A stretch of DNA of 62,965 nucleotides from Indolivaga alginatilytica (GTDB lineage: Bacteria; Bacteroidota; Bacteroidia; Bacteroidales; Dysgonomonadaceae), in the NCBI RefSeq assembly GCF_003201355.1, contig NZ_QICL01000029.1, forward strand, positions 1 through 62,965, in the 5' to 3' direction. Under the pieces are notes generated by a model. The model was not told the origin of the DNA. It was given only the letters and a program-made list of their open reading frames with translations, and did no database searches. Shown one piece after another: positions 5,390 through 59,251 of the stretch; position 1 is the stretch's first letter; each line of letters begins with the position of its first letter. The position numbers and the translations under genes are program-made.

Positions 5390-5414
5390 ACTCCGGATCT
5401 TTTTATTGTTTGGT
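5390..5414 (+). repeat. Hairpin repeat copy, degenerate, after sdaA stop
   Basis: The tail GATCTTTTTATTGTTTGGT matches the consensus tail of the interspersed repeat with one base missing, while the left arm has decayed. It begins one base after the sdaA stop codon. It is the only copy seen in the first 18 kb. Confidence 0.5.
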
Positions 5415-5473
5415 CAGAGAGGGCTTAGTTATTAGTTATAATTAGAGCAAACAATAGTAGAAAATATTTATAA

Positions 5474-5503
5474 TAAAAAGAGCAGCCAATTAGGACTGCT
5501 CTT
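5474..5503 (-). terminator. Intrinsic terminator between converging sdaA and XRE genes
   Basis: Stem AGAGCAG+CC (5479-5487), loop AATTA, then GG, a bulged A, and CTGCTCT (to 5502). On the minus strand the hairpin is followed by TTTTTATT, a good U-tract that ends the XRE transcript. On the plus strand the tail CTTCTTG is weaker but may also stop sdaA read-through. Confidence 0.72.
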
Positions 5504-5508
5504 CTTGT

Positions 5509-6183
5509 CTATATTATTTGAGTAAATAATGCTCTGAGTAGCCAATATTGAGCATGTGATTCTATTTCGAAAGGGTATTTTACCCATTCATTTAGTGATA
5601 AGAAGATTTTTCCTCCCGATTCTTTATATACTCCGGATTTTATACCTTCGTGATCAACCATTACCCCTAACTTATTTATTATTCGGTGAATGTTCTCTTT
5701 TACCACTTGTTCGTAAAGTAAAATATCTCCATTCTTAAAATCGAAACCTAGAGGGAGCGATTCCGAATCTTGTACTTCAATAGCTATTAATTTCGACTTG
5801 GCACTACTGGGGATAAGAATATGAGGAAGGTTGTATATAAACTCGTTATTATTGTAATGTAATTCGTAGTCTGCAATGTCTAAGGAAGACACATATGGAA
5901 CTTCTATAAATTGATGAGTCTTTTTTAATTTTTCAGTTTCTAAGACTAATTCGGTATTATAATGTAGTAGTTCGTTTACTGATAATTCTTTTAGAATAAA
6001 GTCGTTTAACGGGATGCCAAAATATTTAGCAATATTTACAATAGTCTCTATTTTGGGCTCGGCTCTAAATTCCTCATACGAAGATATGTTTCCTCTTGTT
6101 AATTGAAAAAGTTCGGCAAAGGCTTGTTGGCTTAAAGCCTTTACACTCCTTATCTTTTTTATATTTTTTCCAACTTTACTCAT
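5509..6183 (-). CDS. XRE-family regulator with S24-like C-terminal domain
   Basis: A 224-residue regulator. Residues 5-60 form a Cro/cI-type helix-turn-helix (LSQQAFAELFQLTRGNISSYE). Residues about 95-215 resemble the S24/LexA-like fold of cI-type repressors (DSESLPLGFDFKNGDILLYE, then a strand-rich end), but no clear Ser-Lys autoprotease pair is evident, so it may sense without cleavage. It is divergent from the YbjN-PspA-flotillin operon, and its promoter lies in a region with four TTAGC motifs, so autoregulation and control of the neighbouring operon are plausible. Targets are inference. Confidence 0.8.
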   Translation of the reverse strand: MSKVGKNIKKIRSVKALSQQAFAELFQLTRGNISSYEEFRAEPKIETIVNIAKYFGIPLNDFILKELSVNELLHYNTELVLETEKLKKTHQFIEVPYVSSLDIADYELHYNNNEFIYNLPHILIPSSAKSKLIAIEVQDSESLPLGFDFKNGDILLYEQVVKENIHRIINKLGVMVDHEGIKSGVYKESGGKIFLSLNEWVKYPFEIESHAQYWLLRALFTQII

Positions 6184-6227
6184 AAAAAAGTATATTTTTT
6201 GTTTGCCTAGTTAAATTTTTTATCTAA

Positions 6228-6284
6228 TTTAGCTAAAAATATTAGCAAATATAAGATATAAATTAGCAGAATACAAATTTTAGC
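6228..6284. promoter_or_regulatory. Candidate operator: repeated TTAGC motifs
   Basis: Four TTAGC pentamers occur in 57 bp (6229, 6242, 6263, 6280), two of them in the longer direct repeat ATTAGCA spaced by 21 bp (about two helical turns), plus the palindrome TTTAGCTAAA. They overlap the minus-strand XRE promoter and a weaker plus-strand promoter candidate (TTTG at 6202, 19 bp, TAATTTAG at 6225). Spacing and location fit binding by the XRE protein, but this is inference. Confidence 0.4.
6246..6277 (-). promoter_or_regulatory. Promoter of the XRE regulator
   Basis: Read on the minus strand: -33 TTTG (6277-6274), 20 bp, then -7 TATATTTG (6253-6246), a perfect TAnnTTTG. Transcription would start near 6240. 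TTAGC motifs at 6229, 6242, 6263 and 6280 lie within or next to it, and the one at 6229 is part of the perfect palindrome TTTAGCTAAA (6228-6237). Confidence 0.65.
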
Positions 6285-6329
6285 TGTGTAATTTCTTGAT
6301 AAAACAGACAGTACTTTATTACTAATATA

Positions 6330-6728
6330 ATGAATAGCATGTATTTCAAAAAAATAGAAACTTATATTTTGGAGTTGGGGTATTTAATCTCGTATCAAGA
6401 TGAGACTAATGGTGTATTCTGTATAAACAGTGAGGCTGATGGGATCAAGAATTTGATTATTGGAGTAGCTCCACCGATTCTGATAATCGAGCAATTTATT
6501 TTCACGTTGCAAAGTGATGATAAAGAAATTTTGAAATCATTATTAATAAAAAATAGAGATATTATATATGGAGGTTTTGTCCTGAATGAAGATGGCACGA
6601 AAGTTATATTCAGATATACGATGCAAATAGAGAATATGGATATAAACGAATTCGAAGGAGCATTAAATTCTTTGGGATTATTATTGAGTGAGTATTACGA
6701 ACAGATTATTGAATTCGCTAAAAAATAA
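6330..6728 (+). CDS. YbjN-like small protein, first gene of the PspA island
   Basis: A 132-residue acidic cytoplasmic protein with no signal peptide. Alternating beta strands and helices (YISYQDETNGVFCI, LIIGVAPPILIIEQFIF, ending in a helix LLLSEYYEQIIEFAKK) match the YbjN / type III secretion chaperone-like fold. Such proteins are often encoded beside PspA and flotillin genes; in enterobacteria YbjN is a stress-linked regulator of unclear mechanism. The next gene, pspA, starts 5 bp after the stop. An alternative start at the fourth codon is possible. Family assignment moderate. Confidence 0.65.
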   Translation: MNSMYFKKIETYILELGYLISYQDETNGVFCINSEADGIKNLIIGVAPPILIIEQFIFTLQSDDKEILKSLLIKNRDIIYGGFVLNEDGTKVIFRYTMQIENMDINEFEGALNSLGLLLSEYYEQIIEFAKK

Positions 6729-6732
6729 GATT

Positions 6733-7434
6733 ATGAATATTTTCAAACGACTTTTTAGAATTGGTCAGGCTGAAATACATTCAGTATTGGATGGAGTCGA
6801 AGATCCTGTGCAAATTACAGAGCTTGGAATTATGGAAATGAAAGAGAATCTGTCTCTAACATTAGAGTCTTTGGCGAAAATAAAAGCAATGTCAATTCGT
6901 ACTAAGAATGATAAAGAGAAGAAGAGGTCTGAGGCACAAGAATATGAAAATAAGGCTGTGTTATTGATCTCGAAAGCTCAAAAAGGAGAAGTTGATATAA
7001 CTCAGGCTGAGAGATTGGCAAAAGAAGCTCTGCTTCGTAAAAAACAATTACTTTCAGAAATCAGCGATTTGGATGTGCAGCGTATAGAACATGAGAATGT
7101 ATCTTCGGATATTCAAAAAAACATTGAGATACTCAAGTTTAATATCGCAAAGTGGGAAAACGAATTAAAAACTCTTAAAGCTAAAATACGCATAGGTAAA
7201 GTTACTCAGGAGCTAAATAAGCAAATGGCTCAGATAGATAGTAATAGCACTGTGAATATGTTGGAGCGAATAAAAGAAAAGATAGCTGAAGAAGATGCTC
7301 TGACTCAGGCGTATGCATCTCTTAACAAGTGTAGCCTATCTATGGATGATGAAATAGATCGTGTGATTGGAGAAGATACTCAGAATGCTGATGCTGAATT
7401 GGACGAAATCAAGCGAAAATTGGGAATGCAATAA
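6733..7434 (+). CDS. pspA: PspA/IM30-family membrane-remodelling protein
   Basis: PspA/Vipp1-type, ESCRT-III-related protein that coats and repairs stressed inner membranes. The start is the ATG at 6733 (MNIFKRLFRIGQAEIHS, the typical amphipathic N-terminal helix); the open frame runs further upstream but overlaps the preceding gene. The 233 residues are almost entirely helical with long charged coiled coils (residues 45-190), and DPVQITELGIMEM near residue 24 resembles the conserved DPxxxLxQxIREM region of the family. It lies in one transcription unit with YbjN-like, YqiJ-like and flotillin genes, the usual partners. No PspF-type activator is seen nearby. Confidence 0.88.
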   Translation: MNIFKRLFRIGQAEIHSVLDGVEDPVQITELGIMEMKENLSLTLESLAKIKAMSIRTKNDKEKKRSEAQEYENKAVLLISKAQKGEVDITQAERLAKEALLRKKQLLSEISDLDVQRIEHENVSSDIQKNIEILKFNIAKWENELKTLKAKIRIGKVTQELNKQMAQIDSNSTVNMLERIKEKIAEEDALTQAYASLNKCSLSMDDEIDRVIGEDTQNADAELDEIKRKLGMQ

Positions 7435-7461
7435 GAAAAAAGAAACCTTTAAACTTTTACT

Positions 7462-8154
7462 ATGACAGACTTCTTACATACCTTATTTAATCCTCTGCCC
7501 AACGGAATAATGACCGTTCTGATGCTGATAATAGCCATTTATTGGATATTTGTGCTGATAGGCGGTATAGGCTTTGATGATATTGATCTGGATATCGACT
7601 TTTCACCTGATATTGATGTCGACGTAGAAGTTCCCGATATCGAAATTGATGTAGTTGATACTGATAGCCATATTGCAGTGGATAAAGTACCTCAAGGTCT
7701 GTTTCTTCGATGCTTGTCTTTTATAAACGTGGGACAAGTGCCCTTCATGATTATACTTTCCACCTTTATTTTCTTGCTGTGGATAGGCTCACTTATAACT
7801 ACTCATTTCTTTCATGTTGAGCATTTGGGGTGGAGATCGGCATTTATATTATTGCCACTGGTTATTGTGGGAATCATTTTAACGAAGGCTGCAACTACAC
7901 CTATGGCAAAATTCTTTAAAGAAATCAATTATCAGGGAGAAGTGGCCACCGATTTTTTCGGATGTTCAGGGAAAATGTTGTCAAATATTGAAGGAAAGAA
8001 AGTCGGCTCTGCTGAATTTCTGGTAAATAGAAATCCGATTAAATTAAATGTAATAAGCCTCAACGGAGACCCTGTTAAATATGGCGATACGGTTATAATT
8101 ACGGAAGAGCTACCCAAGCAAAATATATATATTGTAATCAAAGATACTTATTAA
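7462..8154 (+). CDS. YqiJ/NfeD-like membrane protein with OB-fold tail
   Basis: A 230-residue protein with three hydrophobic segments: about residues 15-37, 92-114 and 120-145. Between the first two is an Asp/Val alternating stretch (DDIDLDIDFSPDIDVDVEVPD, near 39-60). The C-terminal 75 residues are beta-rich (EVATDFFGCSGKMLSNIEGKKVGSAEFLV) and fit the OB-fold that NfeD and YqiJ proteins place beside flotillins. In E. coli, yqiJ precedes the flotillin gene yqiK, as here. It probably anchors or organises the flotillin below it. The exact family is inferred from topology and neighbourhood. Confidence 0.75.
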   Translation: MTDFLHTLFNPLPNGIMTVLMLIIAIYWIFVLIGGIGFDDIDLDIDFSPDIDVDVEVPDIEIDVVDTDSHIAVDKVPQGLFLRCLSFINVGQVPFMIILSTFIFLLWIGSLITTHFFHVEHLGWRSAFILLPLVIVGIILTKAATTPMAKFFKEINYQGEVATDFFGCSGKMLSNIEGKKVGSAEFLVNRNPIKLNVISLNGDPVKYGDTVIITEELPKQNIYIVIKDTY

Positions 8155-8225
8155 GGTTATTGGCTATAGCTTTACCTTATTTTGCACACAACAATAATTC
8201 TAACTAAATAAATAAAAAACCTTTT

Positions 8226-10412
8226 ATGGAACACATTATCATTATTCTGGTAGGTTCAGTCCTATTTGTTCTGCTTGTGCTTTTAGGCATCCTTGCATCA
8301 TTTTATAAAAAGATACCCCAAGGAAAGGCTATCGTTCGTACGGGTGTGGGTGGAACCAATGTTGCATTCAACAAAGGAATGTATGTAGTACCTATTTTTC
8401 ACAAAATGGAGATCATGGATATTTCAGTGAAGAAACTGGAGATTGAAAGAATGCAACATGATGGATTGATTTGTAGAGACAATATTAGAGCAGACATTAA
8501 GGTTGCTTTCTTCGTACGCGTAAACAAATCGGTAAATGACGTTATTAATGTTGCTCAAACATTAGGTTGTGAGAGAGCGAGTGATTCTCAAACGCTAAAG
8601 AATATATTTGAAGCCAAGTTCTCGGAGGCTCTAAAAACAGTAGGTAAAAAATTCGACTTTATCGAATTGTACGAAGCTCGTAGAGAATTTAGAGACGAGA
8701 TTATCAATATCATTGGTACAGATTTAAATGGTTATATATTAGATGACTGTGCTATTGACTATTTGGAGCAAACGGAGATGAAATATATGAGTCCTGAAAA
8801 CATTCTTGATTCAGAAGGTATTCGTAAAATCACAGAATTAACAGCTGCTCAGAATATCAATGCTAATTTGATTCGTAGAGAAGAAGAGAAAGTTATTAAG
8901 AAGCAAAATGTAGAAGCTCGTGAAGCTATCCTTGAATTGGAAAGACAATTAGCAGAGAAGGAAGAAAAGCAAAGAAGAGAAATAGACAATGTGAAGTCTC
9001 GTGAAGAAGCCGAGATTCAGAAAGTAAGAGAAGAAGAACGTTTAAAATCTGAGACAGTAAGGATTTCTACGGATGAAAGTCTTGCTGTACAAGAAGAAAA
9101 TAAATGCCGTCAGATAATCATTGCCGAGAAAAATAAAGAAAGAACAGAGGCAATAGAAAAAGAACGTGTAGAAAAAGATCGTGCTTTGGAGCAAACCGAG
9201 AGAGAGCGTATTGTAACTCTGGCTCAGATCGAAAAAGAACGCGTTTTGGAAATTGAGAAAAAAAGTATTCAGGATGTTATTCGTGAGCGGGTTCAACTGG
9301 AGAAAGGTGTTGTAGAAGAAAAACAAAATATCAAAGATATTGAGGCTTTCAGAGAAGTGGACCGCCAGAAACAGGTGGGCATAACTATGGCTGCTCAGGA
9401 AGCGGAGGAAAAACTTATCAAGACAGTAAAAAATGCGGAAGCTGAAACAAAAGCTTCTGAAGAAAAAGCGAAACAATTATTGATAAATGCAGATTCCCAA
9501 AAAGAAGCTTCAACAAAACAAGCGGAGGCTCGAAAAATTTTGGCGGAAGCTCAAGCCAAGGAAGATGCTACTTATGGATTGGCAGAGGCTGAAATAATGA
9601 AAGCTAAAGCAGAGGCAGAAGAAAAGCAAGGTATCGTTGAAGCATCTATTATAGAGAAGAAAGCGAAGGCTGAGGCTTATAGCATAGAGACAAGAGCCGA
9701 AGCTAAACGTAAAGATGGATTGGTGGATGCTGAAATCACTAGAGAAAAAGCATTTGCTTCTGCTACGGGGCAAGCTAGTATAATTGAAAAAACTTCCATA
9801 GCTGAGGCAACAGGGATAGAGGTTAAAGCAGAAGCTAGACGTAAAGAAGGTCTTATGGAAGCAGAAGTTTCTAAGGAAAAAGCTCTTGCAGAAGCTACCG
9901 GTATCGAAGAAAAGGCAACCGCAATGAAAAAACTGGATGGTGCTGGAAAAGACCATGAAGAATTCAAATTGCAATTGCAAAAAGAAAAGGATGTTGAAAT
10001 GGCACAAATCGGTATTCAAAAAGATATTGCCGATGCACAAGCACAAGTATTATCAGAAGCATTGAAATCTGCCGATATTGATATTGTAGGTGGAGAAACA
10101 ATGTTCTTTGAAAATATTGTGAAACAAGTTTCTAACGCCAAAGGATTCGATAACTTAGTAAATAAGAGCGAAAATATTCAGCAAATAAAGAAAGCTTTGC
10201 TTGGTGATGGATCGGAAGGCGAATTGTTTAACCGTATCAGATATTATGTGAATAAATTCAATATCTCGACAGAGGATATAAAGAATCTAAGCATTGCAGG
10301 TCTTATCTTGAAGATGCAAAGTCAAAGTACAGAGAGTGAAGATAAAGGATTTTTGAGTAACTTACTCAATATGTCAACTTCATTGGGTATATCCAATAAA
10401 AAGTTGTCATAA
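8226..10412 (+). CDS. Flotillin / YqiK-family protein, long form
   Basis: Membrane-scaffold protein of the SPFH superfamily. One N-terminal transmembrane segment (residues 3-27) is followed by GKAIVRTGVGG and the SPFH/band-7 domain (about 30-200). Then a very long coiled coil rich in Glu/Lys/Ala (about 210-620) contains imperfect repeats around AEAxRKxGLxxAE and SATG/EATG (490-600). The last 120 residues are globular. At 728 residues it is longer than many bacterial flotillins (often 500-600). Antisense open frames over the coiled coil are shadows of its codon bias. Confidence 0.9.
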   Translation: MEHIIIILVGSVLFVLLVLLGILASFYKKIPQGKAIVRTGVGGTNVAFNKGMYVVPIFHKMEIMDISVKKLEIERMQHDGLICRDNIRADIKVAFFVRVNKSVNDVINVAQTLGCERASDSQTLKNIFEAKFSEALKTVGKKFDFIELYEARREFRDEIINIIGTDLNGYILDDCAIDYLEQTEMKYMSPENILDSEGIRKITELTAAQNINANLIRREEEKVIKKQNVEAREAILELERQLAEKEEKQRREIDNVKSREEAEIQKVREEERLKSETVRISTDESLAVQEENKCRQIIIAEKNKERTEAIEKERVEKDRALEQTERERIVTLAQIEKERVLEIEKKSIQDVIRERVQLEKGVVEEKQNIKDIEAFREVDRQKQVGITMAAQEAEEKLIKTVKNAEAETKASEEKAKQLLINADSQKEASTKQAEARKILAEAQAKEDATYGLAEAEIMKAKAEAEEKQGIVEASIIEKKAKAEAYSIETRAEAKRKDGLVDAEITREKAFASATGQASIIEKTSIAEATGIEVKAEARRKEGLMEAEVSKEKALAEATGIEEKATAMKKLDGAGKDHEEFKLQLQKEKDVEMAQIGIQKDIADAQAQVLSEALKSADIDIVGGETMFFENIVKQVSNAKGFDNLVNKSENIQQIKKALLGDGSEGELFNRIRYYVNKFNISTEDIKNLSIAGLILKMQSQSTESEDKGFLSNLLNMSTSLGISNKKLS

Positions 10413-18604: not shown

Positions 18605-18628
18605 GATCGTAGATCTTTTACTAATAAG
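18603..18628 (+). repeat. Hairpin repeat copy at the nuoA stop codon
   Basis: Arms AAGATC and GATCTT with loop GTA: both arms differ from the consensus GGTC/GACC by matching changes, so pairing is kept. The tail is TTTACTAATAAG, degenerate. The first two bases are part of the TAA stop. Confidence 0.7.
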
Positions 18629-18691
18629 TAACTGAAAGTTTTTCAAAAGTAATAACAAGCAATTGTTGTTGCACTGAATAAATAATAAATT

Positions 18692-18705
18692 AGGTCTACG
18701 ACCTT
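18692..18705. repeat. Hairpin repeat copy before nuoB
   Basis: AGGTC, loop TAC, GACCT(T). The conserved tail is not clear on either side, so orientation is unassigned; the preceding AATAAATAATAAAT may be a decayed reverse tail. It lies about 75 bp before nuoB, in a 175-bp gap that otherwise shows no gene. Confidence 0.6.
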
Positions 18706-18779
18706 AAGTATTGTAAACTGAAGCTTGTTATAGACTGATAATATAGCAAAATTATTTTTCTGTGCTTAAAACATGAATC

Positions 18780-19358: not shown

Positions 19359-19889
19359 ATGTCATTGGAAACTATTGATATTCAAAACAAAATAACAGAA
19401 AAATTTGGAGCAGATGTTCTGAACTTTAGAATGGAACAAGACATTCTAACGTTTGAAGCTACTCCTGCCGTGATCAAGAATGTAATCCGTTTTATGAAAG
19501 AAGATGGAACTTTGAGTTTCAACTTTATGACAGACCTTTGCGGAGTGCATTATCCCGATAATGATATTGATGCTCAGTTTGCTATTGTATATTTGATGCA
19601 TAACTGGGTTGATAATGTAAGAGTGAGGGTAAAAACTTTTCTGAATGGTAATAAAGTAGAAGTCGATACAATGACCGATATCTTTGCCGCAGCCAATTGG
19701 ATGGAAAGAGAAACTTACGATTTTTATGGAGTTAAGTTTATCGGGCATCCAAACTTGAAACGTATTTTGAATGATGATGGAATGACATCCTTCCCTATGC
19801 GCAAAGAATATCCATTAGAAGATTCAGGACGTAGTGACAAAGACGACCGTTTCTTTGGTCGAACACCGAATAACTATCAACCTAAATAA
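19359..19889 (+). CDS. nuoC: NADH-quinone oxidoreductase subunit C
   Basis: Peripheral-arm subunit next to NuoD (176 residues). The motif WMERETYDFYGVKFIGHPNLKRIL is the complex I 30-kDa subunit signature (ERExxDxxGixfxGHPxLxRI), and the end FPMRKEYPLED is also typical. It is separate from nuoD, not fused as in E. coli. The stop codon overlaps a hairpin repeat. Confidence 0.96.
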   Translation: MSLETIDIQNKITEKFGADVLNFRMEQDILTFEATPAVIKNVIRFMKEDGTLSFNFMTDLCGVHYPDNDIDAQFAIVYLMHNWVDNVRVRVKTFLNGNKVEVDTMTDIFAAANWMERETYDFYGVKFIGHPNLKRILNDDGMTSFPMRKEYPLEDSGRSDKDDRFFGRTPNNYQPK

Positions 19890-19917
19890 GGTCTAGCGAC
19901 CTTCCTGTTTCTTTGGT
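19888..19917 (+). repeat. Hairpin repeat copy at the nuoC stop codon
   Basis: AAGGTC, 4-base loop TAGC, GACCTT, then CCTGTTTCTTTGGT. The hairpin is perfect and the tail end CTTTGGT is conserved. It begins within the TAA stop of nuoC. Confidence 0.75.
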
Positions 19918-19995
19918 TAGTGCCATAGCTAAAGAGCGTTATAGTTAAATGATATGGCAATAGAAATTATCTAAGTTAAAGAGAGAAAGACTGAA

Positions 19996-21231
19996 ATGTC
20001 AGACCTATTATTACACCCCGAACATCGCTTTGCGAAAATCTTAAGAGATCATACTCCCGAAGATGGTCGTGAGTTGTCGGTTCTAAATTTTGGCCCTACA
20101 CATCCTTCTACGCATGGTGTATTTCAGAATATACTACTTTTGGATGGTGAGCGAATTTTAGATGCCGATACTACTGTAGGTTATATACACAGAGCTTTTG
20201 AAAAAATAGCGGAAAACAGAGCATTCTACCAGATTACTCCGTTAACTGACCGTATGAACTATTGTTCTGCACCAATCAATAATATGTGTTGGTGGATGAC
20301 CATAGAAAAAGCTTTGGGTGTAGAAGTTCCTAAACGTGCACAATATATGCGTGTTATCGTCATGGAATTGGCACGTATCACCGATCACCTTATATGCAAT
20401 GGTATTTTAGGAGTCGATTTGGGTGCATATTCGCCTTTCCTATATGTAATGAAGTACCGTGAATTGGTTTACGAAATCTATGAAGAAATTTGTGGAGGTC
20501 GTTTAACTACCAACATGGGACGTATCGGAGGTTTCGAGAGAGACTGGAGTGAGGCTGCATGGCGAAAACTGGACGAATTCCTTGAAGGATTTCCAAAAGC
20601 TTGGGACGAACTTGAAAGAGCTTACCTACGAAACCGTATATTTATGGATCGTACAGTGAATGTAGGATCTATCTCTGCTGAAAAAGCAATGAATTATGGC
20701 TTTACAGGCCCTAACTTGAGAGCAACCGGTATTGATTATGATGTGCGTGTAGCAAAACCATATAGTTCGTATGAAGATTTCGACTTTATAGTACCAGTTG
20801 GTCAATCGGGAGATACATACGATCGTTTCTGTGTACGTTGTGGCGAAGTGAAAGAAAGCTTGAAAATAATTCGTCAGGCTAAAGATAATCTTCCTGAAGG
20901 TGATTATCACGCAGATGTGCCCGATTATTATCTTCCTCCTAAAGACGAAGTATATACAAGCATGGAAGCTCTTATTAATCACTTTAAAATAGTGATGGGA
21001 GAAATTCCTGTTCCTGTAGCAGAAGTATATCATGCAGTAGAAGGAGCTAATGGTGAATTAGGTATGTATTTGATTACTGACGGTTCGCGTACTCCATACC
21101 GCTTGCATTTCCGTAGACCCTGTTTTATATATTATCAGGCTTTCCCTGAAATGATTAAAGGTGGAATGTTTTCGGATGCTGTAGCTACATTGTCAAGTCT
21201 AAATGTAATCGCAGGAGAATTAGACGCATAG
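19996..21231 (+). CDS. nuoD: NADH-quinone oxidoreductase subunit D
   Basis: The 49-kDa subunit, related to the large subunit of [NiFe] hydrogenases, which forms the quinone pocket with NuoB (411 residues). FGPTHPSTHGVFQ near residue 32 holds the conserved quinone-site His; GRIGGFERD and GPNLRATGIDYDVR are further signatures. The C terminus FYYQAFPEMIKGG-like block is present as FIYYQAFPEMIKGG. The stop TAG overlaps a full-length hairpin repeat. Confidence 0.97.
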   Translation: MSDLLLHPEHRFAKILRDHTPEDGRELSVLNFGPTHPSTHGVFQNILLLDGERILDADTTVGYIHRAFEKIAENRAFYQITPLTDRMNYCSAPINNMCWWMTIEKALGVEVPKRAQYMRVIVMELARITDHLICNGILGVDLGAYSPFLYVMKYRELVYEIYEEICGGRLTTNMGRIGGFERDWSEAAWRKLDEFLEGFPKAWDELERAYLRNRIFMDRTVNVGSISAEKAMNYGFTGPNLRATGIDYDVRVAKPYSSYEDFDFIVPVGQSGDTYDRFCVRCGEVKESLKIIRQAKDNLPEGDYHADVPDYYLPPKDEVYTSMEALINHFKIVMGEIPVPVAEVYHAVEGANGELGMYLITDGSRTPYRLHFRRPCFIYYQAFPEMIKGGMFSDAVATLSSLNVIAGELDA

Positions 21232-26846: not shown

Positions 26847-28736
26847 ATGGAAACAGGGTTAGTATTATTACTTTTAATTTTTCCTCTGGTTGGTTTCTTA
26901 ATCAATCTGAGTGTAGGTAAAAAGATTGGGCGATCGTTACCCGGAATTATTGCTACAGCAGCAGTAACGGGTAGTTTTGCAATCTCCCTCTTTTATTTTA
27001 TACAGATACTTTCGACCGGACAGGCAATCGAAGTTCATCTTTTTCAATGGGTAGCTTTCGGCGAATTCTCAGTAAACCTTGCTTTTGTTCTCGATCAGCT
27101 TTCGTTACTTTGGTTACTGGTTGTAACGGGTATCGGAACATTGATACATATTTATTCGATAGGGTACATGCATGATGATGAAAACGTAGATCGTTTTTTC
27201 TCCTATCTCAATCTGTTTATCTTCTTTATGATTGTGCTTGTAACAGCAAACAACCTACTGGTAATGTTTATCGGATGGGAAGGAGTAGGATTATGTTCAT
27301 ACCTATTGATTGGCTTCTGGTATAAAAATCAACAATTTAATGATGCCGCTAAAAAGGCATTTATAATGAATAGGATAGGGGACTTAGGTTTTTTAACCGG
27401 AGTTTTCACTTTAGCATATCTGTTTAAAACAGTCGATTTTGCAACTTTAAAATTAGCACTTTCTACAACTACTACTCCCGAAACTTCGGCATTATTAGGT
27501 GTAGCAGCCTTCTGCTTATTTATTGGAGCAATGGGTAAAAGTGCTCAGATACCATTATATACATGGTTACCCGATGCGATGGCAGGTCCAACACCTGTAT
27601 CGGCATTGATACACGCTGCAACGATGGTAACAGCGGGTATATTCATGATTACCCGATTGAACTTCTTATTCGACCTTACCCCTGATATTCAATACTTCAT
27701 TGCTATCATTGGTGCTGTAACAGCTTTGTTTGCTGCTTCGATAGGAATTGTTCAAACGGACATTAAGAAGGTACTAGCATATTCTACTGTCTCTCAACTC
27801 GGACTTATGTTCTTAGCTTTGGGACTTGGAGCTTATCAGATTGCTGTGTTCCACGTAATAACACATGCTTTTTTCAAGGCTTGTTTATTCTTAGGGTCAG
27901 GTTCGGTTATCCATGCAATGGGTGGCGAACAGGATATGCGAAAAATGGGTGGCTTGAAAGGCGTGATGTCTATCACTTATATTACATTCTTGGTTTCGAC
28001 ATTATCTATCTCGGGGATACCTCCATTTGCAGGGTTCTTCTCGAAAGACGAAATAATGTTAGTTGCATTCCAAAATAGCCCTATTCTTTGGGTAGTTGCT
28101 ATGTTGGCGTCTTTACTAACAGCTTTCTATATGTTCAGAGTATTGTATCTTACATTCTTCAAAGAATTCAGAGGTACTTCGGAACAAAAGAAACATTTAC
28201 ATGAATCACCTTCTTCTATGACTATGCCTCTTATCGTATTAGGAGTGTTGGCTACTGTGGGAGGTTTGATTAGCTTACCTTTTGGATATAGTTGGTTGAA
28301 TAATTATTTATCTCCTATATTTTCGGGTTCGGATGTTGTCGAAGCACATGGTTTCTCAACAGAACAAATGGTATTTATGGGAGTTTCAACCCTTATTGCT
28401 CTTATTGGTATGAGTTTAGCATATTATAAATATATGACTAAGTCTACAGTACCCGAAGAAGATGAAAAGATTACCGGTTTTGCAAAAGTTCTTTACAATA
28501 AATATTATATTGATGAGATATATAATACAATATTTATAAAGCCAATCTATGCAATGTCTAACTTCTTCAATAGTATTGTAGAAAGTATAATAACAGGAGT
28601 GGTATTCGGGTTTGCTTTAATTGCTAAAGGACTATCCGCTCCGGCAAAAGCCTTACAAAACGGAAGTGTTGGATTTTATCTTTCATTCTTTGTTGTAGCA
28701 TTCTGCTTGTTAATCATTTGTTTATTTCTGGTTTAA
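26847..28736 (+). CDS. nuoL: NADH-quinone oxidoreductase subunit L
   Basis: Distal antiporter-like proton-pumping subunit (629 residues, about 16 transmembrane helices including the C-terminal anchor). Conserved blocks: MFIGWEGVGLCSYLLIGFWY (key Glu), MGKSAQIPLYTWLPDAMAGPTPVSALIHAATMV, and LAYSTVSQLGLMFLALG. The C-terminal half carries the long lateral helix region (about 530-600). The 106-bp gap after it holds a reverse hairpin repeat. Confidence 0.97.
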   Translation: METGLVLLLLIFPLVGFLINLSVGKKIGRSLPGIIATAAVTGSFAISLFYFIQILSTGQAIEVHLFQWVAFGEFSVNLAFVLDQLSLLWLLVVTGIGTLIHIYSIGYMHDDENVDRFFSYLNLFIFFMIVLVTANNLLVMFIGWEGVGLCSYLLIGFWYKNQQFNDAAKKAFIMNRIGDLGFLTGVFTLAYLFKTVDFATLKLALSTTTTPETSALLGVAAFCLFIGAMGKSAQIPLYTWLPDAMAGPTPVSALIHAATMVTAGIFMITRLNFLFDLTPDIQYFIAIIGAVTALFAASIGIVQTDIKKVLAYSTVSQLGLMFLALGLGAYQIAVFHVITHAFFKACLFLGSGSVIHAMGGEQDMRKMGGLKGVMSITYITFLVSTLSISGIPPFAGFFSKDEIMLVAFQNSPILWVVAMLASLLTAFYMFRVLYLTFFKEFRGTSEQKKHLHESPSSMTMPLIVLGVLATVGGLISLPFGYSWLNNYLSPIFSGSDVVEAHGFSTEQMVFMGVSTLIALIGMSLAYYKYMTKSTVPEEDEKITGFAKVLYNKYYIDEIYNTIFIKPIYAMSNFFNSIVESIITGVVFGFALIAKGLSAPAKALQNGSVGFYLSFFVVAFCLLIICLFLV

Positions 28737-28797
28737 GTAATGAAAGTATTTAATGATATATTTTAAAATTATAACAGGCTATAGCTGCTGTGGTTTT

Positions 28798-28824
28798 CAA
28801 AGCAATAAAAAGGTATGAGACCTT
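28798..28824 (-). repeat. Hairpin repeat copy, reverse, before nuoM
   Basis: On the plus strand: CAAAGCAATAAA, then AAGGT, loop ATGAG, ACCTT. Tail conserved; one stem pair lost. It ends 18 bp before the nuoM ATG. Confidence 0.8.
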
Positions 28825-28842
28825 AAAAATTAAAAAAGAGAC

Positions 28843-39384: not shown

Positions 39385-39495
39385 AGACTAGTCGAATTGA
39401 AACTAAGGTCGTGTAATATTTTACAATTTAGGAAAATGTAAAGTCGATTGTTGGTCTTAGTTTAAAAATATGGCTGTAAATATTTTGTATTACTT

Positions 39496-40824
39496 ATGAC
39501 GTATTCATATAAAGATATTTGGAAGGTAAGTCTTCCCATAATGTTAGGGTTGCTGACACAGAATGTCATGCAAATAACCAATACAATATTTCTGGGTAGA
39601 GTAGGAGAGGTCGAGTTTGGTGCAGCCGGTCTTGCCGGTATATACTATATAGCGTTTTTTATGCTGGGCTTTGGATTTAGTATCGGGGCCCAGATAATGA
39701 TAGGACGCCGAAACGGAGAGAAGAACTTTGACCAGATCGGAACGATTGTTCTTCAAGGGATGATGTTTCTCTTGGTTTTTGCTGCTATATTATATGGGCT
39801 TTCGAATGTGTTTTCGAGGACCCTGTTACCCACGTTGATAAAATCGGAGCATGTATATGAGGCGGCTTCCGAGTATTTAAGATGGCGTACATTTGGTTTC
39901 TTTTTTGCGTCGGTTAATATAATGTTCAGGGCTTTTTATGTAGGGATAGCGAGAACCTCTGTGCTTACTCTGAATGCTCTTGTTATGACAATTGTAAATA
40001 TTATTTTTGACTATCTTCTGATTTTCGGGAATTTTGGATTTCCTCAATTAGGGATAGCGGGAGCTGGTATGGCATCGGTGCTTGCCGAGATTTCTTCAAT
40101 TATCTTTTTTGTGGTATATACCCTTAAGACGGTTGATCTAGGAAAGTATGGTTTCCATAAAATGAAATTTAGGTTTGGTGTCATCCGCCGTATTTTGAAT
40201 ATATCAGTGTTTACTATGGCTCAGTATGCAATTTCCATGTCTACTTGGTTTATATTTTTTTTAGCAATAGAAAATCATGGAGAGAGAGATTTAGCTATAA
40301 CTAATATTATAAGAACTTTTTATATGATGTATTTCATACCGATGAATGCCTTGTCAACCACGGCAAATACATTAGTAAGTAATACGATAGGAGCAAGGAA
40401 ATATGAAGAGGTCTGGCCTTTAATTAAGCGGATTTGTTTACTGAATTTGGGTATAGTGGTGCTTATGGGGATATTCACACTGGTAAAAGCCGAACTTTGG
40501 ATTGGACTTATTGCCTCTAACAAAGATATGTCTTTGGTTCAGGAAACCGTAATGCCATTGATTGTTCTGGTTTTTGCTTTGCCGATATGTAGTTTAGGAA
40601 CTGTATTGTTTAATTCGATATCGGGAACAGGAAATACTCGTTGGGCACTAATCTTCGAAATGATAACGCTTGTGTTTTATATAGGTGCTATGTATGTGAT
40701 TGTTATTCACAATAAATCATCAGTTGCAGTATGTTGGACTGTAGAATATATTTATTGGGGAACATTGATGGTATTATCTTACATATATCTTACCCGAGGA
40801 AAATGGCAAAACAAAAGCATATAA
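39496..40824 (+). CDS. MATE-family efflux transporter
   Basis: A 442-residue inner-membrane protein with about 12 transmembrane helices in two similar halves. The N terminus IWKVSLPIMLGLLTQNVMQITNTIFLGRVGEVEFGAAGLAG is the MATE (NorM/DinF-like) signature; GIAGAGMASVLAEISS closes the first half. MATE pumps export drugs or metabolites using Na+ or H+; substrate unknown. A bidirectional terminator follows. Confidence 0.9.
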   Translation: MTYSYKDIWKVSLPIMLGLLTQNVMQITNTIFLGRVGEVEFGAAGLAGIYYIAFFMLGFGFSIGAQIMIGRRNGEKNFDQIGTIVLQGMMFLLVFAAILYGLSNVFSRTLLPTLIKSEHVYEAASEYLRWRTFGFFFASVNIMFRAFYVGIARTSVLTLNALVMTIVNIIFDYLLIFGNFGFPQLGIAGAGMASVLAEISSIIFFVVYTLKTVDLGKYGFHKMKFRFGVIRRILNISVFTMAQYAISMSTWFIFFLAIENHGERDLAITNIIRTFYMMYFIPMNALSTTANTLVSNTIGARKYEEVWPLIKRICLLNLGIVVLMGIFTLVKAELWIGLIASNKDMSLVQETVMPLIVLVFALPICSLGTVLFNSISGTGNTRWALIFEMITLVFYIGAMYVIVIHNKSSVAVCWTVEYIYWGTLMVLSYIYLTRGKWQNKSI

Positions 40825-50841: not shown

Positions 50842-50869
50842 CCAAAGCAATAAAAAGGTCTGAGACCTT
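50842..50869 (-). repeat. Hairpin repeat copy, full length, at the serB stop codon
   Basis: On the minus strand: AAGGTC, loop TCA, GACCTT, then TTTATTGCTTTGG. Perfect consensus copy. It starts right at the TAA stop of serB. Confidence 0.85.
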
Positions 50870-52092
50870 TAATAATCACCTTCGAGCATCGAATCTCTAT
50901 ATCCAAGGAAGTACAATATACCATCAAGCCCCACAGTGGAGAGAGATTGTTGGGCATTCTCTTTTACTTTGGGTTTAGCGTGGAATGCAATACCTAATCC
51001 GGCAGTTGCCAACATTTGCAAGTCGTTAGCTCCATCACCTACGGCTACGGTTTGCTTAAGATCTACTTTTTCGACCTGAGCAATTAAGCGTAGCAATTCG
51101 GCTTTACGTTTGCCATCTACAATGTCTCCGATGTGGTTTCCGGTCAATTTGCCGTCTTCAATCTCCAATTCATTGGCGTATACATAATCGAATCCGTATT
51201 TGTCTTTTAAGTAATTTCCAAAATAAGTGAATCCTCCTGAAAGGATAGCAATTTTGTAGCCACTCTTTTTCAGAATACGAACCAAGCGAGTCATTCCTTC
51301 TGTAATAGGAAGATTTTCGGCGATCTCTTTCATTACCGATTCATCCAGACCTTTTAACAGACTAACTCTTTTTTTGAAACTTTCAGAGAAATCCAATTCG
51401 CCTCTCATTGCAGCCTCGGTAATAGCTCTCACTTCTTCGCCTACTCCTGCGCGGTCGGCAAGCTCGTCTATAACTTCTGTTTGAATAAGGGTTGAGTCCA
51501 TATCGAAACAAATCAGGCGACGCATGCGACGATACATACTTTCTTCTTGGAAAGCTATATCAATCTGATATTTTGCTGAAAGAGTAAGAAAAGTCTTTTG
51601 AAGTTCTTTAAACTGTTCGATAGTTCCCCGAACAGACAATTCTATACAAGAACGTCCTATTCTGTCTTTTTTATTTAACGGAATACGAGAGGTCAGACGG
51701 GTAATTTTCTCAATATTGAGTTTATTATCGAGCAGTACCTGTGTTACTATGGAGATGTGAGTTGCATTTAACTCACGTCCTAAGATAGTTACAGTATAAC
51801 GGTTCTTTCCTTGAAGATTTACCCAAGTAGAATAAGCTTCTTTGGAAAGATGCGAGAATCTGACATTAACGCCTAATTCATCTGCTTTAAATAATAAATC
51901 TTTGAGGATATATCCCGACTTCTCGGTTTCTGATTCAAACATAATCGCTAATGATAGCGAATGATGTATATTTGCCTGTCCTATATCAAGGATTGTAGCC
52001 TTATAATGTCCTAATATTGCTGTTAAAGCTGTAGTTACACCGGGACGGTCTTGTCCTGATATACGAACTAAAATTATTTCCGTATCCTCCAT
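50869..52092 (-). CDS. serB: Phosphoserine phosphatase with N-terminal ACT domains
   Basis: Last step of serine synthesis: removes phosphate from phosphoserine (407 residues). Residues 1-170 are two ACT-like domains (ISGQDRPGVTTALTAILG, then VTILGRELNATHISIVTQVLL), which may bind serine. The HAD-type phosphatase follows with CFDMDSTLIQTEVIDELA near 193 (nucleophile Asp in DMDST), KIAILSGGFTYF near 287 (motif II), and VGDGANDLQMLATAGLGIAFHAKP near 352 (motif IV). Confidence 0.96.
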   Translation of the reverse strand: MEDTEIILVRISGQDRPGVTTALTAILGHYKATILDIGQANIHHSLSLAIMFESETEKSGYILKDLLFKADELGVNVRFSHLSKEAYSTWVNLQGKNRYTVTILGRELNATHISIVTQVLLDNKLNIEKITRLTSRIPLNKKDRIGRSCIELSVRGTIEQFKELQKTFLTLSAKYQIDIAFQEESMYRRMRRLICFDMDSTLIQTEVIDELADRAGVGEEVRAITEAAMRGELDFSESFKKRVSLLKGLDESVMKEIAENLPITEGMTRLVRILKKSGYKIAILSGGFTYFGNYLKDKYGFDYVYANELEIEDGKLTGNHIGDIVDGKRKAELLRLIAQVEKVDLKQTVAVGDGANDLQMLATAGLGIAFHAKPKVKENAQQSLSTVGLDGILYFLGYRDSMLEGDY

Positions 52093-54904: not shown

Positions 54905-54980
54905 TAGATTCTGTCTATTATAAGTAATTGTTTGATAGCAAGATTATTTTAATTATAACTATCAGTTTTACTTATACTTG

Positions 54981-55009: not shown

Positions 55010-55029
55010 TTATATTTTGACACATTAAG

Positions 55030-55653: not shown

Positions 55654-55672
55654 CTACATAATTTTATATGTT

Positions 55673-55700
55673 AAGGTCTCAGACCTTTTTATTTCTTTGG
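55673..55700 (+). repeat. Hairpin repeat copy, full length, after the FAH gene
   Basis: AAGGTC, loop TCA, GACCTT, then TTTATTTCTTTGG. Near-perfect copy, 20 bp after the FAH stop rather than overlapping it. Confidence 0.82.
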
Positions 55701-55701
55701 T

Positions 55702-55753
55702 GTAGAGATGAACCTATGTATTACCTGTAGAGAACATACATACAGGTCTCTAC
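55702..55753 (+). promoter_or_regulatory. Structured leader before porU with two alternative pairings
   Basis: GTAGAGA occurs twice (55702-55708 and 55727-55733) and both copies can pair with TCTCTAC (55747-55753); CCTGTA (55724-55729) can pair with TACAGG (55741-55746). The two folds exclude each other in part. It could be a regulatory leader or chance; no promoter was identified. Confidence 0.35.
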
Positions 55754-55781
55754 TTACAAGTAAAAATACAGTAATAAACAG

Positions 55782-58700
55782 TTGTATTACTTAAGATTAA
55801 AACTCTTGCAGAAATATTTATATATACTATTTATTTTTTGTATTTGTTCCCTGTTTCAACTTTCAGCAGTTGATAATGATGGGAGCAGATATGCTTTAAA
55901 TTCGGTATTATCACAAGGAAACTGGTATAAAATAAAAGTGCCGGCTACCGGTGTGTATAAGCTGACTTATGAGCAGTTATCGGAGATGGGGTTAACTAAT
56001 CCTCAGAATGTGAAAATTTATGGTTATGGAGGTTGGATTCTTGATGAAGATTTCACGAAACCTTATATAGACGATTTGCCTCAGGTATCTATCTGGATGA
56101 GTAAAGAGCCTGCCAGTTTTGGAAAAGGGGATTATATTCTGTTTTATGCCCGTGGGGATATAAAATGGACTTATGACAAACAAATGAAAGAATTTGTTCA
56201 TGAGCAAAACCCATATTCATCAGATAATTATTACTTCGTTACCGAGAATGCGGAACAACCTAAATTAATAGGTATTAAGCCATCGCTATCTACAACGACT
56301 ACTGTTGTGACTACTTTCGATGATTACTTTCTACATGAAAAAGAAGAAGTTAATCTGGCAGAAACAGGACGCGAATTTTTCGGGGAAAGTTTTAAGACTA
56401 AAACGTCCCAGAATTTTTCTTTGCCTCTCGAAGGTATAACTGCCGATCCGGCAGTTATAAGATATAATTTTATATCAAGGGCGTTAATGACCTCGGGAAA
56501 ATTGAGTGTATCGCTTATTGGAGGGAAAGTAAAAGAACAGCCAACCAATGTTACTAATAATGATTATTATATTCATGCCACAACCATAAATGATACCATA
56601 GTAAGGAATAACCTGAAAGCGGATGAGACTCTTAACCTGACTTACACAAAGGGAATGAGCACCGATCAGAATATTCATCTTAATTATATAAGAGTCAATT
56701 ATAAACGTTATCTTAAACCTTACGGAGCGGTAACTCTCTTTCGGGATACAATAAGCGGAGAGGCTGTTACTTTTAATATTTCGGATGCGGGCAGTTCAGT
56801 GCTGGTTTGGGATGTAACTGAAAATACTACTGTCAGTAAAATGGATGCTACTTTATCGGGAACTACTTTGAGTTTCGGTGCATCTAATTTAGAGATACGT
56901 GAGTACGCCTTGGTTGATCTTGCCCAAACGATTCCTTCTCCTGTTATTATTAAAGGTGCAATAAAAAACCAGAATTTACATGCGAGTGCGAATCCTGATA
57001 TGATAATCATTGTGCAGCCGTCTTTGCTGGTTTATGCACAACAGGCTGCCGAATTACATGCAAAAGAGGGTTTAACATCATTAATTGCTACTCCGGATGA
57101 TATTTATAATGAGTTTTCATCAGGGAAACCGGATGTAACAGCCTATCGACGATTTGTGAAGATGTTTTATGACAGAAGCACGTCTGAGGAAGAAAAACCA
57201 CAATATTTGTTCTTATTTGGTGGTGGTACTTATGATAACCGCTTTATTCAGTTTAAGGAGAATAAAGAATCGATGCTTTTAACTTTTCAGACGAAAGAAT
57301 CTTTAAATGAAAAAAATTCTTATGTTACAGACGACTATTTAGGATTTCTGGATGATAAGGAAGGCACTAATCTGGCAACAGATAAATTAGACATTTCAAT
57401 CGGCAGATTACCGGTCAGAACAAAAGAAGAGGCAGAAATTGCGGTAAAGAAAATCGCCAGCTATGTTCAAAATCAAAATATAGGAATATGGGAAAACCAT
57501 ATTACATTCATTGCCGATGATGCAATTGCTCCCAATTATACACTGAGTTCGGAACGTCGGCATATGCTCGATGCCGAGAGATTTGCAACTTATACAAATG
57601 TGAACCACCCCGATTTTATAGTGAACCGTATTTATCAGGATTCTTATGAAAGAGTTATAGAAGCGAATGGGGCACGTTATCCGGATGCTACAAAAGCAAT
57701 GCTTGACAGAATAAATCGTGGTACGCTTGCTCTTAACTTTATTGGTCATGGCTCTACTACCTCATGGACACATGAATATCTGCTTAAGCTGGCTGAGATT
57801 GAGGCGATGGATAATAGTAAATTACCACTGTGGATTACTGCAACCTGCGATTTTAGCCGCTTTGATGCCAATGATATGTCGGGGGGGGAGATTACATTAC
57901 TTAACCCTAAAGGAGGGGCTATTGCCCTTTTCTCGACAGTGAGAGTTGTGTTTCAGGTTGACAATACAAGAATAAACAACAATATAACAAAGCATCTTTT
58001 AGTAGCAAAAGAAGGTAAAGCGGCTCGGTTGGGTGATATAATACGTAACGCAAAATTAGAGACAGATATTTCTAATGATGAGAATAAACTCAAATTTTTA
58101 TTAATGGGAGATCCGGCTTTACGGCTTGGTTATCCTGATAAAACGTACCGTGTAGAAGTGTCTGAAATGAATGGCTTAGGTGCTGATGAACCAGGTATTA
58201 ATATTCAGGCTTTAGGTAGTACAATAATAAAAGGACATATAGTTGATCAGAATGGAGATGTAGTTAAAGATTTTAACGGAACACTCGAAACGGTGATATT
58301 TGATGCCGAACAGACTTTAAAGACTCGTGGAAATACACCTAAGGGAACCAGTGATGAAGTTGCAATGGATTATAAAGATTTTACAAATACATTGTTTTCC
58401 GGGAAAATTGAAATTAAGGACGGCGAGTTCGAGATTAACTTTATAGCACCCAAAGATATATTGTATACCGGAGGAAAAGGTAAAATGAGTTTTTATGCTT
58501 ATAATGTTGAAAAAGACAAACAAGCTCAAGGCTCTTTCTTAAATTATACTGTAGGTGGAACGAATCCCAATCCGCCCGAAGACACTACCCCTCCCGTTAT
58601 CTCAAATATGTTTCTTAATTCGGCCTCTTTCAAATCGGGCGATGTTGTGAACTCTACACCTCTTTTCTTTGCCGATGTAGCTGACGATACAGGCATCAAT

Positions 58701-59231
58701 ATTTCGGACGGGTTAGGGCATAATATGGTTCTTATTCTGAACGGGCAAACTACACTCGATATGACTCCTTATTTTGAGAATGAAGATAACTCGTCAAAAC
58801 GGGGAAGTATCCGCTATCAGTTTTCCGAATTGGAAGAAGGGAACTATACTTTGCAACTAAGAGTGTGGGATGTTTCGAATAACTCGGCAACTAAGTCGAT
58901 CGACTTTGTAATAAGTAATGATTTCCGTCCGGTAGTATACGATTTTCAGATACGGGGAAATCCTGCCAGAAATACTACACGTTTTATGTTCAATACAAAC
59001 ACTCCCGGAGCTAATATCGATGTGAAGATATCAGTCTATTCTTTGATGGGACACTTAGTATGGGTACATGAAGAAAGTGGTGACTTTTTAACTCAATACA
59101 CTTATGACTGGAATTTAAATGGTTCTAATGGAGGGCGTTTAAATCCGGGTGTGTATATTTGCACAGCTCAAATAAGTATAAACGGGAAATTATCAACAAT
59201 GAAAAGTCAGAAGTTGATTATTGCAAATTAA
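55782..59231 (+). CDS. porU: Type IX secretion sortase PorU (gingipain-like C25 peptidase)
   Basis: Surface protease that cuts the C-terminal domain of T9SS cargo and attaches it to anionic lipopolysaccharide (1149 residues). A signal-like N terminus (YLYILFIFCICSLFQLSA) is followed by a beta-rich domain, then the C25 peptidase (about 405-790) with catalytic His in NFIGHGSTTSW and Cys in WITATCDFSRFD, then Ig-like parts and a closing CTD-like domain (YDFQIRGNPARNTTRFMFN to LIIAN). No ATG is in frame near the start; TTG at 55782 (or 55806) is the likely start. Eight G in a row occur at 57881-57888. porV follows. Confidence 0.93.
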   Translation: MYYLRLKLLQKYLYILFIFCICSLFQLSAVDNDGSRYALNSVLSQGNWYKIKVPATGVYKLTYEQLSEMGLTNPQNVKIYGYGGWILDEDFTKPYIDDLPQVSIWMSKEPASFGKGDYILFYARGDIKWTYDKQMKEFVHEQNPYSSDNYYFVTENAEQPKLIGIKPSLSTTTTVVTTFDDYFLHEKEEVNLAETGREFFGESFKTKTSQNFSLPLEGITADPAVIRYNFISRALMTSGKLSVSLIGGKVKEQPTNVTNNDYYIHATTINDTIVRNNLKADETLNLTYTKGMSTDQNIHLNYIRVNYKRYLKPYGAVTLFRDTISGEAVTFNISDAGSSVLVWDVTENTTVSKMDATLSGTTLSFGASNLEIREYALVDLAQTIPSPVIIKGAIKNQNLHASANPDMIIIVQPSLLVYAQQAAELHAKEGLTSLIATPDDIYNEFSSGKPDVTAYRRFVKMFYDRSTSEEEKPQYLFLFGGGTYDNRFIQFKENKESMLLTFQTKESLNEKNSYVTDDYLGFLDDKEGTNLATDKLDISIGRLPVRTKEEAEIAVKKIASYVQNQNIGIWENHITFIADDAIAPNYTLSSERRHMLDAERFATYTNVNHPDFIVNRIYQDSYERVIEANGARYPDATKAMLDRINRGTLALNFIGHGSTTSWTHEYLLKLAEIEAMDNSKLPLWITATCDFSRFDANDMSGGEITLLNPKGGAIALFSTVRVVFQVDNTRINNNITKHLLVAKEGKAARLGDIIRNAKLETDISNDENKLKFLLMGDPALRLGYPDKTYRVEVSEMNGLGADEPGINIQALGSTIIKGHIVDQNGDVVKDFNGTLETVIFDAEQTLKTRGNTPKGTSDEVAMDYKDFTNTLFSGKIEIKDGEFEINFIAPKDILYTGGKGKMSFYAYNVEKDKQAQGSFLNYTVGGTNPNPPEDTTPPVISNMFLNSASFKSGDVVNSTPLFFADVADDTGINISDGLGHNMVLILNGQTTLDMTPYFENEDNSSKRGSIRYQFSELEEGNYTLQLRVWDVSNNSATKSIDFVISNDFRPVVYDFQIRGNPARNTTRFMFNTNTPGANIDVKISVYSLMGHLVWVHEESGDFLTQYTYDWNLNGSNGGRLNPGVYICTAQISINGKLSTMKSQKLIIAN

Positions 59232-59251
59232 GGTCGAAAGATCATTTCCCT
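59230..59251 (+). repeat. Hairpin repeat copy at the porU stop codon, degenerate
   Basis: AAGGTC, GAAA, GATCAT, then TTCCCTTTTAA. Left arm intact, right arm partly decayed. It starts inside the TAA stop of porU. Confidence 0.55.

What the first reader, a model, noticed from the sequence alone, without database searches (positions are those of the whole stretch)
5390..59251. Undescribed-looking family of about 19 short intergenic hairpin elements
I collected 19 copies of a ~28-nt element: AAGGTC, a 3-nt loop, GACCTT, and a tail TTTATTGCTTTGGT. Best copies are at 21230, 50842 and 55673; the rest are listed as repeat features. All lie between genes, nearly all in three stretches (nuo, panCD, nrdJ to porU), and none in the PspA island or from 39 to 50 kb. 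I know of no named Bacteroidetes repeat with this layout. It may be a mobile palindrome or an RNA signal shared by many operons.
Basis: partly seen in the sequence, partly recalled or inferred. Interest (0 to 1): 0.82.

Follow-up and report, generated by a model that had tools for sequence, protein, structure and literature searches.

The report
Mobile hairpin repeat settling on stop codons
The short hairpins are the left ends of a small jumping DNA sequence of about 91 bases, present in hundreds of copies in this bacterium and patchily in its relatives, which lies between genes and unusually often exactly on a gene's stop codon.

Summary
The 28-nt hairpin and tail are the left end (LE) of a unit of about 91 bp with its own right end (RE...ATTACTTA). 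The core occurs 181 times in the genome, 0 times reversed. A covariance model finds 135 copies in the 863 kb sampled and, patchily, relatives in the family and two other families of the order. Near-identical copies have unrelated flanks, and relatives' empty sites have one TA where the filled site has TA on both sides: a non-autonomous mobile element of the MITE/REP kind. It lacks long terminal inverted repeats, and neither enzyme family tested tracks it. The LE stem keeps pairing through double changes. No copy midpoint lies in a called gene, and LE lies exactly on a stop codon in 24 of 127 copies against 7.4 expected, repeated in an independent 400 kb. Many LE hairpins survive without the rest, mostly at stops when a sense gene is upstream; six of seven viral-contig matches are on stops. 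Mobility is well supported; a role in mRNA is plausible, with mixed evidence.

The parts
18625..18706 (-). element copy, reverse orientation (right end near a gene's stop)
   Evidence: model R1 45.8 bits
19329..19356 (+). short derivative, left hairpin on the stop codon of the gene ending 19331; G001 and G002 have stop and start overlapping here (TAATG)
   Evidence: left-end profile 11.8 bits; orthologues
19887..19978 (+). element copy, left end on the stop codon of the gene ending 19889; also present in G005
   Evidence: 48.4 bits
21228..21314 (+). element copy on the stop codon of the gene ending 21231; absent in G005
   Evidence: 59.1 bits
24264..24291 (+). hairpin only, at the end of the gene ending 24265
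   Evidence: left-end profile 11.7 bits
25317..25402 (-). element copy, stem AGCTC/GAGCT; absent in G005
   Evidence: 35.3 bits
25974..26001 (.). bare palindrome TAGGTCNNNGACCTTA at a gene end; stem kept and loop changed in G003 and G005
   Evidence: profile 6.1 bits
28734..28825 (-). full element copy; site exactly empty in G003, filled in G005
   Evidence: 91.9 bits
38861..38954 (-). decayed copy
   Evidence: 31.7 bits, E 0.008
39404..39496 (+). decayed copy with good right end; site exactly empty in G005
   Evidence: 37.1 bits
50769..50796 (+). hairpin only, on the stop codon of the gene ending 50771
   Evidence: perfect hairpin; profile 7.9 bits
50787..50870 (-). strong left end at the stop of the gene 50869-52092, no right end; a separate terminator-like hairpin follows
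   Evidence: 41.7 bits
52103..52194 (-). element copy at a gene end; also present in G003 and G005
   Evidence: 75.3 bits
53554..53629 (-). left end with stem GGGTC/GACCC at a stop codon; kept in G005 and, with one base missing, in G003
   Evidence: 33.7 bits
54078..54105 (-). hairpin-only left end at a stop codon, stem partly broken here, intact in G005
   Evidence: profile 24.0 bits
54921..55009 (-). element copy; site exactly empty in G005
   Evidence: 47.4 bits
55672..55793 (+). long form of the element (about 120 nt, different middle, same ends)
   Evidence: model match 55672-55756, 39.3 bits

Best explanation
A family of short non-autonomous mobile DNA elements (about 91 bp, with a long form of about 120). 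Shown: a left end that is a 5-bp, 3-nt-loop hairpin with a T-rich tail; a different right end, ...ATTACTTA; TA on both sides of filled sites and a single TA in empty ones; hundreds of copies; turnover between species. Inferred: an enzyme supplied in trans recognises the ends, and the paired left stem matters to it as a single-strand structure. Copies are tolerated only between genes. The TA of a TAA or TAG stop is a safe site because the element begins with A, so TA|A keeps the stop. Inferred, less securely: when the left end faces the stop, the hairpin becomes the start of the 3' untranslated RNA and is often kept when the rest decays, perhaps as a weak terminator or mRNA-end structure.
For: Core 181 against 0. 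135 model hits in 863 kb. Exact empty sites: 4 among 38 G000 copies with both flanks found and one clean case in the other direction. Copies up to 97.8% alike in flanks 42% and 60% alike. Patchy: 25 of 101 family genomes, 7 of 393 of the order. Stem: 98.3% of 235 cells paired, 12 cells changed on both sides against 1.2 in shuffles; a wholly different stem in G433. Left end on a stop 24 of 127 against 7.43 expected; second, independent set 8 against 2.39, p 0.0007.
Against: No mobilising enzyme or autonomous copy found. The ends are not long inverted repeats. Base asymmetry around the insertion seen in G000 is not repeated in G005. In G005 left and right ends are on stops 6 and 4 times, and in wide gaps 0 against 0.33 expected. 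Pairing is not better at stops (20 of 33) than elsewhere (51 of 71) for hairpin-only copies, and hairpin-only sites shared with relatives show no extra conservation of the stem. In the shuffle test the number of pairs with a double change, 2 of 5, is not unusual (112 of 500).
Confidence: 0.88

Rival explanations
1. A stereotyped transcription terminator or RNA signal of these bacteria that arises in place at gene ends and is not mobile.
For: Hairpin plus T-rich tail; hairpin-only copies at stops, 33 of 45 with a sense gene upstream; viral-contig copies at stops; stem covariation.
Against: A conserved 91-bp unit with its own right end in both orientations; exact empty sites; near-identical copies in unrelated flanks. 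Hairpin-only copies with a sense gene upstream and a converging gene number 11 of 105, no clear enrichment where terminators belong.
Confidence: 0.07
2. A classical MITE moved by a TA-duplicating DDE (IS630/mariner-like) transposase, as proposed for RUP.
For: TA on both sides in 86 of 135 copies; size near 100 bp; +1 A in 16 of 23 in G005, as a symmetric TTAA target would give.
Against: Ends share only TAAG; the left stem keeps pairing while its letters change, unlike a protein-read inverted repeat; no DDE_3 match in any of 6 genus genomes, and in only 7 of 25 element-bearing family genomes.
Confidence: 0.35
3. A REP- or IS200/IS605-like element moved as single-stranded DNA by a Y1 (HUH) transposase: insertion after (W)TTA without duplication, hairpin recognised by structure.
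For: Unlike ends; stem covariation; right end CTTA resembles the site before the left end; T in 55 of 86 at the third base before the insertion against A in 39 of 86 at its mirror in G000 (p 0.02); exact loss or absence in G003 of a copy that G000 and G005 share.
Against: G005 shows no such asymmetry. Y1_Tnp is in 12 of 25 element-bearing genomes and 31 of 76 others, absent at threshold in element-rich G001, G003 and G015. No supported hairpin at the right end.
Confidence: 0.35
4. Chance hairpins in AT-rich intergenic DNA.
For: Inside the window the relaxed pattern is not above shuffles.
Against: 181 against 0 in the genome; left-end profile 228 hits at 12 bits or more against 3 in reversed sequence.
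Confidence: 0.01

Closest known systems
TA-ended bacterial MITEs: RUP, ERIC, Correia/NEMIS
   Same: About 100-200 bp, no coding capacity, TA at the ends, hundreds of intergenic copies, hairpins in transcripts (passages of PMC2229807).
   Different: Those have terminal inverted repeats of 7-24 bp in the table seen; here the ends share only TAAG, and one end is a hairpin of its own whose letters change between lineages.
REP repeats (GTAG- and CGTC-tagged) with RAYT
   Same: Short palindromes at gene ends; GTAG REPs often supply the stop codon TAG to flanking genes (passage of PMC3733652).
   Different: No GTAG or CGTC tag; a 91-bp unit with a conserved right end; Y1 transposase genes do not track it.
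BrickBuilt and other MITEs of Porphyromonas gingivalis
   Same: MITE-like repeats in the same order; one printed terminal repeat contains AAAGGTCTC, like the left arm here (passages of PMC4596501).
   Different: BrickBuilt carries 23-nt tandem repeats and inverted terminal repeats; its target duplications vary in length.
IS200/IS605-derived non-autonomous elements (recalled, no call)
   Same: Unlike ends, hairpin at an end, exact excision.
   Different: In that family, as recalled, hairpins are subterminal at both ends; here the hairpin starts at the insertion point and no right-end hairpin is supported.

Membership tests
MITE (TA-type) | TA at both ends of filled sites, single TA in empty sites | tested here: met
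   a true duplication cannot be told from insertion after TA
MITE (TA-type) | Terminal inverted repeats | tested here: not met
   ends TAAGGTC and, reversed, TAAGTAA: only TAAG shared
MITE (TA-type) | Parent transposon with the same ends | tested here: inconclusive
   no DDE_3 in 6 genus genomes; no autonomous copy in 1.3 Mb; the rest of the genomes was not scanned for one
REP/RAYT | GTAG or CGTC tag beside the palindrome | tested here: not met
   conserved 5' letters are TTA/TA
REP/RAYT | RAYT (Y1) gene in genomes with the repeat | tested here: not met
   PF01797 in 12 of 25 element-bearing and 31 of 76 other family genomes
REP/RAYT | Short palindrome that pairs | tested here: met
Intrinsic terminator | Hairpin followed by a T-run at transcript ends | tested here: inconclusive
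   sequence shape fits (about 5.3-5.5 T in 8 nt); no transcript data; many copies lie inside operons such as nuo
Named RNA family | Match in Rfam 15 | tested here: not met
   0 in the window at gathering score; in three loci with element copies only two sub-threshold matches, neither over the element

The most novel reading that the evidence does not exclude
A mobile element whose left end is a portable gene-end cassette: it inserts at TA, keeps the stop codon and adds an RNA hairpin to the mRNA; that hairpin is then kept alone as a regulatory mark at many host stop codons and in phage operons, and the element is moved by an enzyme class not yet linked to such repeats.
Probability: 0.25. Interest if true: 0.82.

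Novelty: new variant of a known kind. Interest (0 to 1): 0.56.

Why it matters
An element with TA ends like MITEs but a structure-conserved terminal hairpin like REPs fits neither family cleanly. With hundreds of copies, and patchy across an order of gut bacteria, it is a natural experiment on how repeats settle on gene ends. If the leftover hairpins act on mRNA, many operons of these bacteria, nuo among them, carry an unrecognised and recently acquired 3' signal.

Tried and rejected
Chance hairpins: rejected by genome counts.

Gene truncation by insertion (stop codon made inside a gene): not seen at the stop-codon sites where an empty relative could be read; the stop is at the same place there.

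A general hairpin at all stop codons: not supported; of 711 gene ends, 5-bp stems with a 3-nt loop starting at the last base of the stop number 20, of which 15 are AGGTC, against 0-7 at the other offsets scanned.

Long-range pairing of the tail with the right end, and a middle hairpin: seen by eye, not supported by consensus folding, which keeps only the left stem.

IS630-type and Y1-type partners do not track the element. An autonomous long version with the same ends: right ends far from left ends gave no convincing case (one search was noisy). Repeated genes in 686 proteins of the 863 kb: two pairs only, one of them a short helix-turn-helix-like protein, not followed. Named plasmids and phages: no match to one element copy. 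A four-base TTAA/YTAR duplication: the base before TA varies while the right end stays CTTA, so not supported.

My notebook says 20 of about 87 left ends at stops; the list shows 19 of 87.
Full report
WHAT WAS CHECKED. Inside the window the bare hairpin with up to 3 mismatches is not above shuffles (26 against 19.3), but the longer core AGGTCNNNGACCTTTTTATT occurs 181 times in the 5.12-Mb genome and 0 times reversed. An exact scan of named genome contigs with a 27-nt pattern hit only Dysgonomonas records (8 stretches, 3 species), so the window very probably comes from that genus or a close one; its own record may be left out of that collection. Five of six genomes of the genus carry the core (17 to 181 copies, reversed controls 0); the sixth, 62% complete, has none, and one weak model match.

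ANATOMY. Reading outward from the core shows that many copies continue in a shared way. The unit is TA|AGGTC-NNN-GACCT-TTTTATTGCTTTGGCAAG, a variable middle, then about AAAATATAGCATTAAATATTT...ATTACTTA. Of 38 units cut out by a two-end search, 27 are 88-92 nt; a few are about 120, with another middle (a GTAGGGGC...GCCCCTAC-like hairpin) and the same ends. I aligned 25 of those 27, leaving out the two that diverged most; RNAalifold keeps one helix, the 5-bp left stem. A covariance model from this alignment finds 79 copies in 463 kb, 12 of them in the window, 56 in a second 400 kb and 44 in 440 kb of relative G005. That extrapolates to roughly 800 copies in the genome.

STEM. In 223 left ends, 31 of 39 pair positions changed on both sides are Watson-Crick; these include inherited subfamilies such as AGCTC/GAGCT and are not independent. 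In 47 copies picked from three families (two fetched loci left out), 98.3% of 235 cells pair and 12 cells are changed on both sides against 1.2 in shuffles (0 of 500); the count of pairs with such a change, 2 of 5, is not unusual (112 of 500). In G433, another family of the order, three copies read AGCAC/GTGCT with loop TCA, the same tail and the same right end. So pairing is kept while the letters change.

MOBILITY. The most alike pair of copies is 97.8% identical with flanks 42% and 60% identical. I compared 70 of the 79 G000 copies (the 9 weakest left out) with stretches of G005 and G003. Both flanks were found for 38: some have a related element at the same place, others are empty or rearranged. 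Four empty sites match to the base: window 28734, 39404 and 54921, and C1 168507. At 28734, on the element strand, filled TTTTTA[AGGTC...ATTACTTA]AACC corresponds to TTTTTA|AACA in G003. In the other direction, of 34 G005 copies given (of 44), 25 had both flanks; two have gap 0, one of them clean and one with poorly matching flanks. The site at 28734 is filled in G005 but empty in G003, whose NuoL is closer to the window's (98% against 94%); that needs an exact loss, an exchange between strains, or two insertions.

HOW IT MOVES. TA lies at both ends in 86 of 135 copies. Two readings fit equally: a TA duplication around [AGG...ACT], or insertion after TA of [AGG...ACTTA]. In G000 the third base before the insertion is T in 55 of 86 and its mirror A in 39 of 86 (p 0.02), but G005 does not repeat this (12 of 23 against 16 of 23). 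Y1_Tnp is found in 12 of 25 element-bearing and 31 of 76 other family genomes; DDE_3 in none of the six genus genomes and 7 of 25 element-bearing ones. No autonomous copy was recognised in the 1.3 Mb scanned. The mover is unknown, and I hold the single-strand and the TA-duplicating readings about equally likely.

WHERE IT SITS. None of 135 copy midpoints lies in a called gene (simple codon-usage gene calling, 82-88% of bases coding). The left end lies exactly on a stop codon in 24 of 127 usable copies (8 left out), against 7.43 expected if copies fell on any TA of the same gap in either orientation; in gaps of 60 bases or more, 12 of 95 against 1.87. The first set suggested this (16 against 5.04) and an independent set repeated it (8 against 2.39, p 0.0007; in its wide gaps 3 of 44 against 0.73). 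The right end lies exactly on a stop 3 times, with 6 more four bases off. G005 is weaker: 41 of 43 usable, left end 6 against 2.61 (p 0.03), right end 4, wide gaps 0 against 0.33; the window alone gives 1 against 1.11. By model score the left-end-on-stop copies are spread evenly (8 of 42, 8 of 42, 8 of 43 in the thirds of the two sets), so there is no trend with age. Where an empty site could be read at such a copy, the stop codon was already there.

HAIRPINS ALONE. Of 223 unique left ends in 1.30 Mb of G000 and G005, 94 have a strong right end within 145 nt, 24 a weak one and 105 none; 27 strong right ends lack a strong left end. Where a sense gene is upstream, hairpin-only copies are on its stop in 33 of 45, full copies in 16 of 45 (p 0.0006). 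Seven stretches of viral contigs match the core; in six it lies exactly on a stop codon, the exception being L211. The five scored (L211-L215) lack a right end; L216 and L217 were not scored. Some of these contigs have further related hairpins at stops. Of nine upstream proteins given, four match a named function in PHROGs (tail sheath, a head or tail protein, a head-tail adaptor, a primase), one a family of unknown function, four nothing. This suggests that the hairpin can be kept by itself. Against it: pairing of hairpin-only copies is no better at stops (20 of 33) than elsewhere (51 of 71). In 58 comparisons with relatives, 33 sites are shared; for 12 full or partial copies the left end is better kept than middle and right end (stem arms 0.82 and 0.72 against 0.57 and 0.55), but for 21 hairpin-only ones nothing stands out (0.71-0.79 from stem to right end), and the 'shared' label itself used the left end.

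WHAT IS KNOWN. Rfam has no match over the element. Seven searches of the open library listed no paper that I recognised as describing it; subscription papers are not covered. Closest are TA-ended MITEs (passages of PMC2229807), REPs, whose GTAG ends also supply stop codons (passages of PMC3733652), and the BrickBuilt MITE (passages of PMC4596501). In PMC8040213 I saw passages; in PMC10969869 a term search gave no passage. Each known kind fails a defining feature: no terminal inverted repeats, no GTAG or CGTC tag, no partner that tracks. I therefore file it as a new variant of small non-autonomous repeats, not as a member of one named family.

VERDICT. Mobile repeat: strongly supported. Left-end-first preference for stop codons: supported and repeated within this genome, weaker in G005; selection or targeting not separated. 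RNA role: plausible, untested.

Noticed in passing
L212-L217 (viral contigs): The same hairpin without the rest of the element sits exactly on stop codons of viral genes, among them a tail sheath gene and its neighbour.
   Followed up: partly
window 55672-55793; L043:12826-12947: In the long form the middle is replaced by a GTAGGGGC...GCCCCTAC-like hairpin with the same two ends, as if one repeat were nested in or swapped into another.
   Followed up: no
window 28734-28825: This copy is shared with G005 but exactly absent in the closer relative G003: exact excision, strain exchange or repeated insertion at one TA.
   Followed up: partly
L083:1450-1986 (G000 C1 near 535982): A single RAYT-like Y1 transposase gene (178 aa), with no element copy next to it.
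   Followed up: partly
L009 and L027 (C1 near 164400 and 540800): Two copies whose left end is followed by the same foreign stretch (CAATTGGATTAGTCG...), in the first of which part of a normal element follows: a composite form.
   Followed up: no
literature, BrickBuilt terminal repeats (PMC4596501): A printed IS5-type terminal repeat of Porphyromonas contains AAAGGTCTC, like this left arm; chance or a hint at the partner.
   Followed up: no
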